Shown: piece after piece, positions 9,209-15,121 of the stretch | How positions within the stretch are numbered: position 1 is the stretch's first letter | How the letters are laid out: each line of letters starts with the position of its first letter | Virus record (IMG/VR): IMGVR_UViG_3300025617_000090 | Coordinates: 1-27,129 of that record | DNA length: 27,129 nt | DNA from: a virus | Reading direction: 5' to 3' (one strand) | Translations under genes and position numbers: made by a program | The notes under the pieces: generated by a model | What the model saw: the letters and a program-made list of their open reading frames with translations, nothing else | Told to the model about the DNA's origin: nothing | Database searches by the model: none

Positions 9209-9486
9209 TAGTCGTTCTTCCGTATGTCTAAGACACCAACCTCTAACCCGTCCGGGTCGGACATGGCGTATAGCACATCGTTAGGTTGCAGCGTTATCTG
9301 GATAGTAGCGCCGGGATCGATGTGGATTGAGTCCGCGAGGGTCATATCAGCGGGACCGATATGTACGTAATGGTTAGAGCTCTTCGTCATGTTATGAAGT
9401 GTCACATCATGCGGTTGATTATCGCCGCCGACGATCAGCGTTGCTGTCGTATCGGAAAGCGTGACGGAAGTGGTGGTTACTGGCAT
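9208..9486 (-). CDS. Small beta-rich structural protein (possible head decoration)
   Basis: This 92-residue protein is nearly all predicted beta strand (SVTLSDTTATLIVGG, DVTLHNMT, HYVHIGPADMTL, ATIQITLQPNDVLYAMSD). This single jelly-roll-like pattern is found in small phage capsid-decoration or fibre-base proteins. It lies between portal and protease genes, and the start codon overlaps the portal stop. I did not recognise it with certainty; the structural role is inferred from position and strand pattern. Confidence 0.6.
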   Translation of the reverse strand: MPVTTTSVTLSDTTATLIVGGDNQPHDVTLHNMTKSSNHYVHIGPADMTLADSIHIDPGATIQITLQPNDVLYAMSDPDGLEVGVLDIRKND

Positions 9487-10850
9487 TAGACGACCTCATC
9501 TTTGTAAACTGATTCGGGGTCGATCGGGTCGATCGCAGTGACCTGTTGCAAAGCGCTCGGAGGCAATCCGGTGTGAACGATCGGCGGCAAGCCCAGCATC
9601 TCTAGCACATCAGCCGGTTGGAAACCAGCCGCAACGAGTTTCTGAGCACCCTCGATTTTGCTCTTTAGGGCAGTCACGTTGGAATCGTCGATATTGACGT
9701 TAGCGAGTGGCACGCGTACCTTATCAGCGCTCTCAGTATCCATCGGGGACAAGTCTTCTAAGCGGCGGACATCGTTGATAGTCAAAAAGCCCGACTGAAG
9801 ACCCGTAGCGTATGCCGAGGATCGTGACTGAATATCAGCGCGTAGCAGACCATCGAGGTTGAACTTTAGGAAAGCCTCTTCTCCGCCAGGTGAGCGAGCG
9901 AGCAGTTTAGACATAGCGCCTTCGATCTTCGTGATGATCGGTCGCAAACCGTGAGTGACCCAAGCGAGATTAGTCTGCTCGACGCTCGCGTAAGAGTTAG
10001 TTCCCGGGAGCGCCAGGAGGTGAGGAGGCACGTTGAACGCACGGGCGACATCTTCTACCGCCATATGACGCGCTTCTAGCGACTGAGAAGCAGCCGGGTC
10101 GATTTGAGTCGCCTTGAACGTCGCGCCGCCGGAAAGGACGCCGGTGCGATGACCACGACGCCAACCCTTGTGGCGAGAATCGAACCCGCTCGCCAAGTTG
10201 GAGGCTTGCTCGGCGGTCAAGTTACCAGGGAACTCGATAATACCGGACAAGTTCGTGCCCATACCAAAGAACGTAGCCGCGAAGCGCTCCAAAGCGAGAG
10301 CCAAACCGAAGTTTTCCTTCAAAGCCTTAGTTCTAGACTCGCCGCGTATCTGACCCGGACGAACGAGATCGGGAATAAAGATAACGTCCTCGTGGCTAAG
10401 GACTTTCTCTTCGCCTTCGAGGATAAACTGCAAGCGACCGAGAGCGTTACGTTTCACTTCAACATGCGTCGGGTTTAGAACCGTAAGATTGACGACCTCA
10501 CCACGACGATTGCTGAACACTCTAATAAAAGCGTTGCCATCTAGTAGTAATGACACGATGAGGGAATTGTAGAACGCCTCTCGTGGGAGATCGACATCTG
10601 GACTACTAACCCAAAGCGGTTTGGGTCGGTAGGGAACTCTCGTTTCGCCATCGCGTACAAAACTATCTAGAGGGAGCGTCGAGATCGTGTCAGCGATGAG
10701 AGAAACAGCGGAATAAACAGCGTTTACTTGGAAGACCGTCTTCTCATCGACGTTCGTCGCCGATAAGGTTCCGAAGGCGATGTCGTCACCGGACTCGAAG
10801 ACCGTCTGAAAGTCGATCGCCCTCTGCTCGAACAGTTTATTGAATACCAC
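9486..10850 (-). CDS. Portal protein
   Basis: This 454-residue HK97-type (phage_portal) protein forms the twelve-part ring through which DNA enters the head. Recognisable features are NAVYSAVSLIADTISTLPLD near the N-terminus, HEDVIFIPDLVRPGQIRGES in the middle, and the clip/stem segment RHMAVEDVARAFNVPPHLLA with SYASVEQTNLAWVTHGLRP, which is highly characteristic. It starts with GTG directly after the TAA of the small membrane protein, so translation is likely coupled. The C-terminal part is acidic. Confidence 0.93.
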   Translation of the reverse strand: MVFNKLFEQRAIDFQTVFESGDDIAFGTLSATNVDEKTVFQVNAVYSAVSLIADTISTLPLDSFVRDGETRVPYRPKPLWVSSPDVDLPREAFYNSLIVSLLLDGNAFIRVFSNRRGEVVNLTVLNPTHVEVKRNALGRLQFILEGEEKVLSHEDVIFIPDLVRPGQIRGESRTKALKENFGLALALERFAATFFGMGTNLSGIIEFPGNLTAEQASNLASGFDSRHKGWRRGHRTGVLSGGATFKATQIDPAASQSLEARHMAVEDVARAFNVPPHLLALPGTNSYASVEQTNLAWVTHGLRPIITKIEGAMSKLLARSPGGEEAFLKFNLDGLLRADIQSRSSAYATGLQSGFLTINDVRRLEDLSPMDTESADKVRVPLANVNIDDSNVTALKSKIEGAQKLVAAGFQPADVLEMLGLPPIVHTGLPPSALQQVTAIDPIDPESVYKDEVV

Positions 10851-10984: not shown

Positions 10985-12511
10985 CTATCCAAAGAATTCA
11001 GGGACTACATCTTCTATTCTACCCACAGTTGCTCGGTCATATGCTAAGACCGCCGCGACCGCGCCGTCAATCTTCCTCATACTATTACGTTTCTCTTTCA
11101 CGATACGAGGACCTAACGAGTCTACCTTCGTGACCGCGTTCTCTAAATGGCGTGAAAGAGTAGGATCGCCGTCGTGAACGATTTGCTTGGAAGTCACAGC
11201 GTCATAGAACTTCGCACAAGCAGGAACCATACGCCGCGCACTAGTCGATGGCCATTCCACAACGGGTAATCCCATATCTTCGAGGACCTGCATACTGCGT
11301 TGCCAACGGAAAGGGTCACAAGCGATCTCCCGGACATTCCTATGCTCTTTGCAGAACTCGATAATGGTATTCTCGACGTCCGATATATCCACCCGCCACT
11401 CATCGCTGTCGGTTTCCTGCTTTTCCCAAGCTTTCACTAGAAAGACACGGGAAGGTTCTTCCTCATTCTTCGGAACGGTCGCCCCGACGACCACAGAAGC
11501 GTCACCGGAGAACGATCCATCGAAGCCCAAGACGATCTCATCATCATGTTTCACGTGAAACTCTCCCTCGCAAGCGTCCCAAGCTCCGTTAGGTAGCCAA
11601 GCGATCTGGCTAGAAACCCACTGATTACAGCGTTTAGTACGGAACTCCGCCTCGGGAGTCCTTCGCACAGCCGATTTGAAGTCGTTTTCATCGTTTAGAT
11701 CGGCGAAGCCAGGGTTAGCCGCCGCCCAAACCTCGGGAGCCTTATGATCGCCCTCCGCTTCCCACCATGCCATGAAGAAGGAGTCATCTTCCGTTTCCCC
11801 TTTAGCGATGGACTTACCGTAGTTGTATAGCGTGTAAGCGATAGAGTCCCGACCGGTGCTATCAGCCTTCGTCCCAGCAGTCGTGATCGCCATCAAAGAA
11901 GCCTTATTACCTCTAGCGCCCATCGCCAAAGACATAACATCGAACAGTTCCCGATTCGGTTGCGCGTGCAACTCGTCGAACATGACGAACGTAGGGTTTA
12001 GTCCCTCTTTTGAGTAAGCCTCCGCCGACAACACCCGATATACGGAGTTCTTTTCCGGTATGTGGATAGCGTTCCGGTAAACCTTAGCCATAGAAGACAA
12101 GTCTTCGCTCGCCTCGATCATCCTCACAGCATCACGGAACACGATCCTCGCCTGATCGGTCTCAGCCGCCACAGAATAGACCTCCCCGCCCTCCGGTCCC
12201 ACGATTAGTGAATACAGCGCCAGGATGGAGCCGAGCGCACTCTTACCGTTCTTCCGAGGCATACCCACCAGGTTGATACGGTTCCGCAAGCCGCCGTCTT
12301 CATATGCGAACAGATGTTCGATAAGCGTTCTTTGCCAATCGCGCAGCTCTAACGCCTGACCCGCCCTCCCAGCGACGGAGTCCTTCGTGATCAGACCGTA
12401 GTTATCCGCGAAGTCATTGACGTACGCTCCGTAGGATCGTTGTAGGGCTTCACTCGGTAAAGGTGTCAGCCACTTCGGAGGCCACGATGTCGTGGTTGTT
12501 TGCTCGCTCAA
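10985..12511 (-). CDS. terL: Terminase large subunit
   Basis: This is the packaging motor ATPase and nuclease. The Walker A region is NLVGMPRKNGKSALGSILAL, Walker B is FVMFDELHAQ, and the nuclease domain starts at VLGFDGSFSGDASVVVGAT (first acidic residue D) and continues with REIACDPFRWQ. The TTG at 12511 is preferred because GGAGGAG lies 4-6 nt upstream and the protein then starts near the conserved PPKWLTPLP segment, giving 508 residues. A longer frame from ATG 12556 exists but adds only Arg-rich sequence inside the small-subunit gene. The gene overlaps terS by about 60 nt. Confidence 0.93.
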   Translation of the reverse strand: MSEQTTTTSWPPKWLTPLPSEALQRSYGAYVNDFADNYGLITKDSVAGRAGQALELRDWQRTLIEHLFAYEDGGLRNRINLVGMPRKNGKSALGSILALYSLIVGPEGGEVYSVAAETDQARIVFRDAVRMIEASEDLSSMAKVYRNAIHIPEKNSVYRVLSAEAYSKEGLNPTFVMFDELHAQPNRELFDVMSLAMGARGNKASLMAITTAGTKADSTGRDSIAYTLYNYGKSIAKGETEDDSFFMAWWEAEGDHKAPEVWAAANPGFADLNDENDFKSAVRRTPEAEFRTKRCNQWVSSQIAWLPNGAWDACEGEFHVKHDDEIVLGFDGSFSGDASVVVGATVPKNEEEPSRVFLVKAWEKQETDSDEWRVDISDVENTIIEFCKEHRNVREIACDPFRWQRSMQVLEDMGLPVVEWPSTSARRMVPACAKFYDAVTSKQIVHDGDPTLSRHLENAVTKVDSLGPRIVKEKRNSMRKIDGAVAAVLAYDRATVGRIEDVVPEFFG

Positions 12512-12941
12512 TGATCTCCTCCAGTTTGCTTCGCGCTTTGACCTGCGCCACGCCAAGTCTAGTTCTATCAGCCGGTGTTAGACCCAAAGAAGCCAAGTTC
12601 TCTTTGATAAGACCGGAAAGTCTATCCACGCGGCGTCCGATCGCCATATCATCGTTCTGCATAGTTTTGATACGCAAGTTCCAACGCTCATCAACCATCT
12701 CGCAAGTCATGAGCAACATTTCGGAGTCGGCATCGAAACTAATCCAGTTAGCGCCCATCAACCAAATGCGATCCCAGAGTTCCTTACCTGGCTTAAGCAA
12801 CGGTCGCGGCGGTTCCGGTATGCCCTGAACGCGTGGCAACTCTTGGAGTTCATCGTCCTTCGGTAACGCCCTCTTACCTGGATTACCTAACAACCTCTTT
12901 TGCTCGATAGGCGTGGGAGGTCTGCCCTTCTGAGCCATCAC
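12450..12941 (-). CDS. terS: Terminase small subunit (P27-like)
   Basis: This 163-residue DNA-recognition subunit opens with MAQKGRPPTPIEQKRLLGNP and GKRALPKDDELQELPRV, the standard start of P27-family small terminases (G-R-P-P-x-P, R-L-x-G-N-P-G). The middle has WDRIWLMGANWISFDADSEM, and the C-terminus has LGLTPADRTRLGVAQVKARS. It lies directly before terL, with ATGA overlap to the kinase gene upstream, so kinase and terminase are made from one message. Confidence 0.9.
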   Translation of the reverse strand: MMAQKGRPPTPIEQKRLLGNPGKRALPKDDELQELPRVQGIPEPPRPLLKPGKELWDRIWLMGANWISFDADSEMLLMTCEMVDERWNLRIKTMQNDDMAIGRRVDRLSGLIKENLASLGLTPADRTRLGVAQVKARSKLEEIIERANNHDIVASEVADTFTE

Positions 12942-13522
12942 ACACTCGCTTCATCCATCGGTAGGTCTATCGCCTCTCGAATGATGTCGGCGATCGCTGT
13001 TGGTCCTATATTAGTAGTATCGACAGGTAAAGCAGGGATACCGTTGGTCACCGCCTTCTCGAACATGCGGAAGCTCGCTGTAGCCCTCCCTTTGATCCAG
13101 GTAGGGTTTTGGTCGGACCCGCGCTCCCGACGCCTCTGCGCGGCGTTCTCAGCCGTTAGTAGTACCACCAGGGTCTTGCACCGCATACCCAGCGTAAATA
13201 AGAACTTCTCGTTCGCGAGCCGCGCTCCCTCCCCCAATATAACGCTTGGGAGATCGTCCTCAGCCGCCCAAGCCACCGCGTCCGGGTTCACACTCATACC
13301 GAGCGCGTCCGTACCGGAGAAAGTGCCCCGAGTCCTACCAAGACGCACGCCCGATCCTGCGCCGCCTTCCAACGGTTCGCCCCACAACTGACCGCGCAAC
13401 CGGATCGCCTCCCCCACTCGATAGTGCGAAGAGAGTGCGTTCATCACGGTCGTCTTTCCAACACCAGGTTCTCCTACGAGATAAACCGCGATACTAGAAC
13501 TCTCCAAAGCGCACGCCCCCAC
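12938..13522 (-). CDS. P-loop kinase of the phage DNA-base hypermodification type
   Basis: This protein has a Walker A motif, LVGEPGVGKTTVM, then TRGTFSGTDALGMSVNPDAV and VILGEGARLANEKFLFTLGM, and AAQRRRERGSDQNPTWIKGR near the C-terminus. The FSGTDALxM, GEGxRLAN and RGSxQxxTWxKGR motifs match the phage kinase family that includes 5-hydroxymethyl-dU DNA kinases. Those enzymes phosphorylate hydroxymethylated bases in DNA so that other groups can be added. GTG 13522 is chosen because TAAGAT ends 8 nt upstream and no Shine-Dalgarno is present; TTG 13531 and later codons are possible. It is downstream of the dioxygenase and overlaps terS by 4 nt. Family assignment is strong, substrate is inferred. 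Confidence 0.78.
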   Translation of the reverse strand: MGACALESSSIAVYLVGEPGVGKTTVMNALSSHYRVGEAIRLRGQLWGEPLEGGAGSGVRLGRTRGTFSGTDALGMSVNPDAVAWAAEDDLPSVILGEGARLANEKFLFTLGMRCKTLVVLLTAENAAQRRRERGSDQNPTWIKGRATASFRMFEKAVTNGIPALPVDTTNIGPTAIADIIREAIDLPMDEASV

Positions 13523-13530
13523 TCTATGCA

Positions 13531-13536
13531 ATCTTA
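13531..13536 (-). promoter_or_regulatory. Possible -10 box for the kinase-terminase transcript
   Basis: TAAGAT on the minus strand lies 8 nt before GTG 13522, fitting a leaderless start. It follows a hairpin at the end of the dioxygenase gene, as expected for a new transcription unit. No good -35 is seen. Confidence 0.35.
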
Positions 13537-13553
13537 AAAATTATTTTCGCGCC

Positions 13554-13575
13554 ATAGGCATTCGCCTATTTTTTT
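13554..13575 (+). terminator. Hairpin with T-run at the end of the dioxygenase gene
   Basis: ATAGGC and GCCTAT pair around a 4-nt ATTC loop and are followed on the plus strand by a run of Ts, the form of an intrinsic terminator. It overlaps the dioxygenase stop codon. On the minus strand it is followed by GGCGCG and only later AATTTTT, so it would end sense transcripts poorly. No plus-strand gene ends here, so its target is unclear. Confidence 0.45.
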
Positions 13576-14453
13576 ACGATCTTCGTGTCGCCGTTGGAGC
13601 GTCCCGTCTTGACTTTCTCTTTTAGGGAATCGATGCTGTCGCCTACCATGCCTGCCTCGCGCTCCTTGCGCCGCTTGCGGGCTTCCCCGATCTCGACAGC
13701 GTAGGTGTGGCAGTCCTTCATTCCTCTCTTAGCGTAGAAGACGATCGAGTAGCGGTAGCCGTCCTTTTGGCGGACTGACATCGGTGTTACCCCGTGAACA
13801 TACTTGTAGCCGTTGAACCATAGTGCCCAACCGTCTTTACACGCGATCGTCATACCGTATTCGGGCATGTGAAGGTTGCCGCCATCCATACCGCGACGTA
13901 CGACGGGCATAGCTGACCAGGTATCGAAGTTAGCGCCGTCCCTGTGATATGGCAAAGGGCTTGACTGGTTGATAACGCCGGAGGTCCAAAGTGTTTCATC
14001 GGTCATACGCCATTCCGGTAGGACGACATCGATCTCTTTGAAGTCGTTTTCGAAGACTTCCGGCAACTCCTGACGCAGATACGATGCCAAAACATCCGAG
14101 GTTTCGTTTAGGGTCATCTGGGATTCGGGGTCTTCGTAAGTGAAAGACGTGGGAGTGCAGGCTTCCCGTTGGAGCACCGCCGAGCGGGTCGTCATACCGA
14201 ACGTCCGGGAAACGTTGCGCGTGCCGGAGGATCGTAAAGTCGTGGAGTAGTGCGTCTTCAGCACAGCGGCGCGTAGAGGTGTTACCTTCTCCGGGTATGG
14301 CGCGTACATAAGAACTGCCTCACCGGTTTCCGCGTCGCGGTAGATACCAGCTTCTGTGATGTTAGGTACGATGTCGGGCACCGTTTCACCCACGACAGCA
14401 TCGGCGTCCTTCTTATCCAAAACACGGGTTATTTCATACTCTGGTAGTTTCAC
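13566..14453 (-). CDS. TET/JBP-like 2-oxoglutarate, Fe(II)-dependent DNA base dioxygenase
   Basis: This 295-residue protein has the double-stranded beta-helix dioxygenase signature: H170 and D172 (PYHRDGANFDTWS), H220 (YKYVHGVTP) and R234 (DGYRYSIVFY), with GGNLHMPEYGMTIACKDGWA between. The H-x-D, G-G-x-L-x-x-P-x-Y-G, H-G and R-x-S-I-V-F-Y order matches the TET/JBP superfamily, which oxidises the 5-methyl group of thymine or 5-methylcytosine in DNA. H/D/H bind iron and R binds 2-oxoglutarate. The C-terminus (250-295) is Lys/Arg-rich and may bind DNA. It overlaps the ParB-like gene by 4 nt and precedes the kinase. Whether the substrate is T or 5mC cannot be told; no methyltransferase is in the window. 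A general dioxygenase is the alternative. Confidence 0.78.
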   Translation of the reverse strand: MKLPEYEITRVLDKKDADAVVGETVPDIVPNITEAGIYRDAETGEAVLMYAPYPEKVTPLRAAVLKTHYSTTLRSSGTRNVSRTFGMTTRSAVLQREACTPTSFTYEDPESQMTLNETSDVLASYLRQELPEVFENDFKEIDVVLPEWRMTDETLWTSGVINQSSPLPYHRDGANFDTWSAMPVVRRGMDGGNLHMPEYGMTIACKDGWALWFNGYKYVHGVTPMSVRQKDGYRYSIVFYAKRGMKDCHTYAVEIGEARKRRKEREAGMVGDSIDSLKEKVKTGRSNGDTKIVKK

Positions 14454-15121
14454 AGCGCTTCCTCTACTAGTTTGCGAACGACATCGGCGTTGTTATCCAT
14501 CTCGAACTTCTTACCGAGTTGGTCTAACATCTCTACCATTTTCGCATAATCAGTTTGGGGATAGTAGAGAAGTATCCCTCGCGTCGCGCGATTGACATAA
14601 CGCTCCAAGAACTCGTCGTAGGTCTTTTCCTTCTCAACCTGCATACTCGGGTCCGAACGGTTACTGCGATCGCCGCCGCCGCCGTCCTCGGTCTTAGCCG
14701 CCACCGTGATTTGATGTTCATCTGCCAGAGCCCGGAAGTCTTCCAAAGCGATCTCGTCGAAACCAACGCTCTCAAGCCCGTCGGAGCCGATAATGTCGAA
14801 CGCGCTCATAAGTTCATCGACGTTCCACTCACCGAGCTGCCCGATCCTGTTGTCCGCGACAGAGTATGCGGTAGCGGTCTGCTCATCGTCGTCTACCCAT
14901 ACGACAGCGATCTCTTCCCAACCTAGTTCCTGCGCCGCCTGGTACTGGTGGTTCCCGGCGATGATCTCCTTCGTCTTCTTATGCGCGACGATGGGCTTCC
15001 GCTGCCCGAAACGCTCATACGACTTCTTGATAGCCTCGATGTCGCCCATACGCGGGTTAGAAGCAGCGAGCTTCAGTTTCGATAACGATACGGCTAGGGG
15101 TTGCAGGTCTTTGACGATCAT
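14450..15121 (-). CDS. ParB-like (ParB/Srx fold) protein
   Basis: This 223-residue protein starts like phage ParB-domain proteins: SLSKLKLAASNPRMGDIEA, then FGQRKPIVAHKKTKEIIAGN, HQYQAAQELGWEEIAVVWVD and YSVADNRIGQLGEWN. The usual G-H-x-R nucleotide-binding signature appears as GNHQ. A Gly/Asp-rich linker near 148 leads to a C-terminal domain (TYDEFLERYVNRATRGILLY and DNNADVVRKLVEEAL) common in phage homologues. GGAGAC precedes ATG 15121. In phages such genes lie beside DNA methylases or base-modifying enzymes, and here the next two genes are a TET/JBP-like oxygenase and a kinase. It may guide or support DNA modification; its exact reaction is unknown. Confidence 0.85.
   Translation of the reverse strand: MIVKDLQPLAVSLSKLKLAASNPRMGDIEAIKKSYERFGQRKPIVAHKKTKEIIAGNHQYQAAQELGWEEIAVVWVDDDEQTATAYSVADNRIGQLGEWNVDELMSAFDIIGSDGLESVGFDEIALEDFRALADEHQITVAAKTEDGGGGDRSNRSDPSMQVEKEKTYDEFLERYVNRATRGILLYYPQTDYAKMVEMLDQLGKKFEMDNNADVVRKLVEEAL

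What the first reader, a model, noticed from the sequence alone, without database searches (positions are those of the whole stretch)
12938..15121. ParB-like / TET-JBP-like dioxygenase / P-loop kinase cassette: likely DNA base hypermodification system
Three adjacent genes code for a ParB-domain protein, a 2-oxoglutarate dioxygenase with H170-x-D172, H220 and R234 in TET/JBP order, and a P-loop kinase with FSGTDALGM, GEGARLAN and RGSDQNPTW motifs. The dioxygenase family is known to hydroxylate the 5-methyl group of thymine or 5-methylcytosine in DNA. The kinase family is known to phosphorylate 5-hydroxymethyl-dU in phage DNA before further groups are attached. Together they predict chemically modified virion DNA that escapes host restriction. 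No methyltransferase, glycosyltransferase or other decorating enzyme is visible, so the end product is unknown and this may be a minimal or new variant.
Basis: partly seen in the sequence, partly recalled or inferred. Interest (0 to 1): 0.88.

Follow-up and report, generated by a model that had tools for sequence, protein, structure and literature searches.

The report
Phage cassette predicted to phosphorylate DNA bases
This virus fragment from an environmental sample carries three side-by-side genes (a DNA clamp-like protein, a TET-type oxygenase and a small kinase) that probably add a phosphate to the methyl group of thymine in the virus's DNA before packaging, a stripped-down form of a DNA-armouring pathway already known from other phages.

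Summary
On the minus strand lie a ParB-fold protein, a true TET/JBP oxygenase and a P-loop kinase, followed directly by the terminase genes. The oxygenase passes Pfam Tet_JBP and keeps H170-x-D172, H220 and R234 in all 20 relatives aligned. The kinase belongs to PF18751, not to PF18748, the Pfam "5-hmdU DNA kinase" family.

The system is not unseen: the same order occurs in isolated phage Margaery, and Rhodococcus phage Tonitrus was published with a related set. The kinase family alone is weak evidence, because it also occurs in phages with no TET.

Three results tie this kinase to TET. Of 37 kinase-bearing viral loci with enough flank, 30 carry TET. In phage Pherbot a PF18751 kinase overlaps HMUDK_hel. 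In the window's own group TET and kinase moved between phage backbones as one unit; TET gives one clade (support 100/99), TerL rejects it (AU p = 0.0003).

In this group the slot after TET holds a kinase, glycosyltransferases or nothing. No transferase was found in complete relatives, so a phosphorylated base may be the end product. Thymine is more likely than 5-methylcytosine but not proven.

The parts
14450..15121 (-). ParB-fold (ParB/Srx N-domain) protein, 223 aa, first gene of the cassette; probable DNA-loading or targeting partner
   Evidence: phrog_620 5e-32; ParB_N 1.3e-5; AF2 model pLDDT 84 matching ParB/Noc/KorB N-domains E 4e-8; whole-record search of 15 phage records: found in all ten that carry TET or a DpdA module, absent from the five with neither
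13566..14453 (-). TET/JBP-type Fe(II)/2-oxoglutarate dioxygenase, 295 aa; H170-x-D172, H220, R234
   Evidence: Pfam Tet_JBP 1.9e-10 over cut-off; invariant catalytic residues in 20 relatives; PDB matches NgTet1 and TET2
12938..13531 (-). P-loop kinase of family PF18751, 197 aa; sits in the slot that holds glycosyltransferases in most relatives
   Evidence: PF18751 2.6e-21; AF2 pLDDT 91, adenylate/shikimate-kinase-like fold, Z about 12; moved together with TET
12450..12941 (-). terminase small subunit, P27 family (flanking packaging gene, not part of the chemistry)
   Evidence: TIGR01558 4.7e-6, below that model's curated cut-off; conserved downstream neighbour in relatives
10985..12556 (-). 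terminase large subunit (flanking packaging gene)
   Evidence: position between TerS and the HK97-type portal 9486-10850; synteny in relatives; TerL tree used as backbone marker. Named by position and synteny; no family search of this protein gave a terminase match

Best explanation
The cassette makes a two-step post-replicative base modification of phage DNA just before packaging. The ParB-fold protein loads on or marks the phage DNA (inferred). The TET-type enzyme hydroxylates the 5-methyl group of a pyrimidine, most likely thymine, giving 5-hydroxymethyl-dU (family chemistry shown elsewhere; substrate inferred). The PF18751 kinase then phosphorylates that hydroxyl (inferred from co-transfer, co-occurrence and fold). 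In the window and in complete relatives no transferase that would use the phosphate as a leaving group was found, so the phosphorylated base may itself be the product. Its role would be to block host restriction.
For: True TET with intact active site. The kinase fold is a real phosphotransferase fold. Of 37 IMG/VR kinase loci with at least 3.5 kb upstream, 30 hold TET, 21 the amino acid:DNA transferase ADDT, 20 both. TET and kinase travel as a unit: {window, L002, L003, L004} is one clade in the TET tree (100/99) but is rejected by TerL (AU p = 0.0003) and TerS (p = 0.0015); identity to the window is higher in L003/L004 than in L005 from the ParB C-terminus through TET, lower in ParB N-terminus and TerS. 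The kinase replaces glycosyltransferases in the same slot. In Pherbot a PF18751 kinase gene overlaps HMUDK_hel, the partner found next to the PF18748 kinase of M6. ADDT, TAGT, HMUDK_hel and C5-methyltransferase are absent from the window; ADDT is absent from complete Margaery, Nigel and Ottawa and TAGT from complete Margaery. Phosphorylating 5hmdU alone with the known kinase made SP8 DNA resistant to more restriction enzymes (PMC7653180). No C5-methyltransferase (PF00145) in 9 complete TET-bearing isolates.
Against: PF18751 is not the Pfam family of the known 5-hmdU kinase, and direct similarity is weak. PF18751 kinases with the same motifs stand beside terminase in phages with no TET, no thymidylate-synthase-like enzyme and no ADDT. 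The closest relative, L002, carries a C5-methyltransferase (in two frames), so 5mC is a possible substrate. The window is an incomplete genome.
Confidence: 0.5

Rival explanations
1. TET and kinase act as above, but the phosphate is only a leaving group; a transferase outside the fragment or of an unrecognised family replaces it, so the product is an aminoacyl-type thymine as in ADDT phages.
For: Most TET+kinase viral loci also hold ADDT (20 of 30); the sister isolate Kozie has ADDT and an FAD oxidoreductase between TET and kinase; the window is a fragment.
Against: No ADDT in complete Margaery, Nigel and Ottawa nor in the 71 kb contig G023, all with contiguous TET-kinase; none in the three closest contigs.
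Confidence: 0.22
2. The kinase is a packaging-linked enzyme that acts on something else; TET alone modifies the DNA (5-hydroxymethyl base).
For: 362 Mycobacterium phage records hold a related kinase but only 55 hold a TET relative; UncleHowie, BirdsNest and Imvubu have the kinase directly upstream of TerL and no TET in the whole record. Six contigs have ParB-TET with no slot gene, so TET alone can suffice.
Against: TET and kinase moved as a unit independently of TerS and TerL, and in the window group the kinase is confined to four contigs while the packaging genes are universal.
Confidence: 0.15
3. Same pathway, but the substrate is 5-methylcytosine made by a phage or host C5-methyltransferase.
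For: L002, the closest relative, and the contigs behind L036, L043, L047, L106 and L109 carry C5-methyltransferase sequence. As I recall, a published phage TET acts on 5mC (Burke et al. 2021, paper not held).
Against: None in the window, L003, L004 or any of 9 complete TET-bearing isolates; the transferase ADDT that often accompanies TET and kinase belongs to the thymidine pathway (pathway from memory).
Confidence: 0.13

Closest known systems
ParB-TET-kinase-terminase cassette of Microbacterium phage Margaery (Mementomorivirus)
   Same: Same three genes in the same order, directly upstream of terminase, no ADDT or TAGT in the whole genome
   Different: TET 45% and kinase 39% identical; no separate TerS annotated there; no published biochemistry found
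Five-gene thymidine hypermodification set of Rhodococcus phage Tonitrus (PMC11955845)
   Same: ParB, TET (best phage record hit, about 50% identity), PF18751 kinase
   Different: Tonitrus also has ADDT (PF18724) and a further gene of the kind found in CloverMinnie and Kozie; the window has neither
Thymidine hypermodification of Pseudomonas phage M6 (PF18748 kinase + HMUDK_hel + ADDT)
   Same: P-loop kinase proposed to act on a 5-hydroxymethyl pyrimidine in DNA
   Different: M6 has no TET relative; its kinase is PF18748 with a separate HMUDK_hel partner
TET + TET-associated glycosyltransferase (TAGT) systems
   Same: Same TET and ParB, same slot before terminase in sister contigs
   Different: Decorating enzyme is a glycosyltransferase rather than a kinase
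DpdA/QueCDE 7-deazaguanine modules of cluster B mycobacteriophages (CRB2, Knocker)
   Same: ParB-like first gene and PF18751 kinase next to terminase
   Different: Guanine replacement chemistry, no TET in the record

Membership tests
TET/JBP dioxygenase (PF12851) | Profile match above curated cut-off | tested here: met
   40.7 bits against 34.9
TET/JBP dioxygenase (PF12851) | HxD...H iron triad and 2OG-binding R | tested here: met
   H170, D172, H220, R234 invariant in 20 relatives
TET/JBP dioxygenase (PF12851) | Oxidation of 5-methylpyrimidine in DNA | not testable with these tools
   needs enzyme assay
5-hmdU DNA kinase of the M6 type (PF18748) | Profile match to PF18748 | tested here: not met
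   not among the 25 best of 28 listed families for the window kinase; best is PF18751; M6 gp54 itself matches PF18748
5-hmdU DNA kinase of the M6 type (PF18748) | Detectable relation to M6 gp54 by profile | tested here: inconclusive
   hhalign probability 56% over the P-loop half
5-hmdU DNA kinase of the M6 type (PF18748) | HMUDK_hel (PF18723) partner | tested here: not met
   absent from window; among 24 records searched present only in Pherbot, beside its PF18751 kinase
Ploopntkinase3 (PF18751) | Profile match above cut-off | tested here: met
   76.5 bits against 27
Thymidine hypermodification pathway with ADDT | ADDT (PF18724) gene | tested here: not met
   no match in window or its three closest contigs; all are fragments
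TET-TAGT glycosylation system | TAGT (PF20691) gene | tested here: not met
   no match in window; window is a fragment
ParB/Srx fold | ParB N-domain profile and fold | tested here: met
   phrog_620 5e-32; Foldseek to ParB/Noc/KorB; Pfam ParB_N just under cut-off

The most novel reading that the evidence does not exclude
A phosphorylated base, 5-phosphomethyl-deoxyuridine (or the cytosine analogue), is the finished DNA modification of a phage lineage, made by TET plus a PF18751 kinase with no transferase, and kinase or glycosylating modules are exchanged after TET as interchangeable end caps.
Probability: 0.3. Interest if true: 0.8.

Novelty: new variant of a known kind. Interest (0 to 1): 0.55.

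Why it matters
If right, phages armour their DNA by phosphorylating the bases themselves, a simpler end point than the sugar and amino acid decorations described so far. The slot after TET (kinase, one to several glycosyltransferases, or nothing) gives a natural series for testing what each extra step adds against host restriction. Isolated phages with the same three genes exist, so one mass-spectrometry run could settle it. The PF18751 kinases kept in many mycobacteriophages without TET raise an open question about what they phosphorylate.

Tried and rejected
Kinase as a terminase small subunit, as phrog_800 and several records name it: rejected, because the fold is a phosphotransferase fold and a separate P27-like TerS follows in the window. 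TET as a queuine tRNA-ribosyltransferase, as phrog_6059 and RefSeq name it: rejected. The strong form of "kinase is packaging-linked only": I leaned to it, then lowered it. PF18748, PF18723, PF18724, PF20691, PF00145 and PF00303 as hidden partners in the window: no matches. Pfam on 20 further window ORFs found no decorating enzyme. A Rosetta structure of the kinase's own family: PDB sequence matches were to the P-loop region only. Iyer 2013, Lee 2018, Lee 2022 and Burke 2021 could not be read (not held); statements resting on them are from memory. One look-up by a guessed PMC id returned an unrelated paper.

Full report
What is there. The window is a 27,129-base linear fragment of a virus genome. 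Nearly all genes lie on the minus strand; in reading direction: tail, lysis, replication, then the finding, then TerS, TerL, portal, capsid and tape measure. The finding is three tight genes: ParB-fold 14450-15121, TET 13566-14453, P-loop kinase 12938-13531.

TET. Pfam Tet_JBP matches above its cut-off. In an alignment of 20 relatives H170, D172, H220 and R234 are invariant. The only sensible PDB matches of that profile are NgTet1 and TET2. Phage databases often misname this gene "queuine tRNA-ribosyltransferase".

Kinase. It belongs to PF18751. The AlphaFold model (pLDDT 91) has an adenylate/shikimate-kinase-like fold, with many P-loop kinases tied at Z 10-12. M6 gp54, which I take from memory to be a tested 5-hmdU kinase, belongs to a different Pfam family, PF18748 "5-hmdU DNA kinase", and the direct comparison is weak.

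A real objection. PF18751-type kinases are common in cluster B mycobacteriophages: 362 Mycobacterium records match the window kinase against 55 with a TET relative. CRB2, PenguinLover67 and Knocker pair the kinase with a DpdA/QueCDE module. UncleHowie, BirdsNest and Imvubu have it directly before TerL with no modification genes beside it. Whole-record searches find no TET in any of these six, and the kinase motifs are the same. I found no explanation for what the kinase does there. B1 phages are reported to carry a lone DpdA-like gene elsewhere (PMC9584339), and B1 phage Orion had no detectable 7-deazaguanine by LC-MS (PMC6884629).

Evidence that binds kinase to TET. First, among 58 IMG/VR kinase loci, 37 have enough flank; 30 of these hold TET, 21 ADDT and 20 both. 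The loci were confirmed with the window kinase as query, which may favour TET-type kinases. Second, in Pherbot a PF18751 kinase gene overlaps a PF18723 HMUDK_hel gene, the helical partner that sits beside the PF18748 kinase in M6, and a thymidylate-synthase-like gene is nearby. Third, phylogeny: in the window's own group the TETs of window, L002, L003 and L004, the only ones with the kinase, form one clade (100/99), while TerL rejects that clade (AU p = 0.0003) and TerS too (p = 0.0015; that tree carries a long-branch warning). The ParB tree neither shows nor rejects it. L005 has a closer backbone than L003 (TerL 79 vs 73, TerS 74 vs 57, portal 80 vs 65) but a more distant TET (76 vs 86) and a glycosyltransferase in the slot. 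Windowed identity shows L003/L004 closer to the window than L005 from the ParB C-terminus through TET, and further in the ParB N-terminus and TerS. The exchanged unit is ParB C-terminus, TET and kinase.

The slot. Between TET and TerS these related contigs carry the kinase (4), one to several TAGT-like glycosyltransferases (most), a glycosyltransferase plus an epimerase/dehydratase (L005, L007, L010, L018, L036), or nothing (L024-L027, L031, L032). In the IMG/VR sets no TET locus held both kinase and TAGT, although the two sets were chosen by different queries; Acadian is an exception.

Minimal form. The contiguous ParB-TET-kinase order without ADDT also occurs in complete isolates Margaery, Nigel and Ottawa. 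It is therefore recurrent, not merely a truncated pathway. A transferase of an unknown family elsewhere in those genomes is not excluded. Phosphorylation of 5hmdU alone by the known kinase made SP8 DNA resistant to more restriction enzymes (PMC7653180), so the phosphate could be a functional end point.

Substrate. No C5-methyltransferase in the window, L003, L004 or nine complete TET-bearing isolates; L002 has one, read in two frames, and a few other contigs do. Thymine is favoured, not shown.

ParB. The model matches ParB/Noc/KorB N-domains. In 15 whole phage records it occurs in all ten that carry TET or a DpdA module and in none of the five with neither (M6, BirdsNest, UncleHowie, Pherbot, Imvubu). 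It follows the modification module whatever the chemistry, which suggests a DNA-loading or targeting role. One paper likens the CRB2 ParB to DpdB (PMC6392294).

Novelty. Parts and general logic are known or predicted; Tonitrus was published as a thymidine hypermodification system (PMC11955845). The transferase-free kinase form and the TET-kinase co-transfer are, as far as my searches of held papers show, not described.

Noticed in passing
L058:776-1744 and L055:813-1691 (Nigel and Acadian gp2); phrog_6059: TET/JBP oxygenases are annotated as queuine tRNA-ribosyltransferase in RefSeq and PHROGs; profile searches show they are TET relatives.
   Followed up: yes
L059:4041-4598, L065:1-567, L062:41685-42248; phrog_800: P-loop kinases of two families (PF18751, and M6 gp54 of PF18748) are annotated as terminase small subunit.
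   Followed up: yes
L064, L065, L069 (BirdsNest, UncleHowie, Imvubu): PF18751 kinase with intact motifs sits directly before TerL in phages with no TET, ADDT, HMUDK_hel or thymidylate-synthase-like gene; its substrate there is unexplained.
   Followed up: partly
L024, L025, L026, L027, L031, L032: ParB-TET followed directly by TerS with no decorating gene: a possible 5-hydroxymethyl-only form.
   Followed up: partly
L022:1643-4963 and L028, L030, L034, L035, L039: Slot expanded to several TAGT-like glycosyltransferases, in five contigs after a gene of one further family (no Pfam match for the L022 copy); may build a multi-sugar decoration.
   Followed up: partly
L002:72-976: C5-cytosine methyltransferase motifs at the contig start, read in two frames, in the closest relative of the window.
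   Followed up: partly
L067:6336-7809 (Pherbot gp53-gp54): HMUDK_hel overlaps a PF18751 kinase instead of the PF18748 kinase seen in M6, with a divergent thymidylate synthase nearby.
   Followed up: partly
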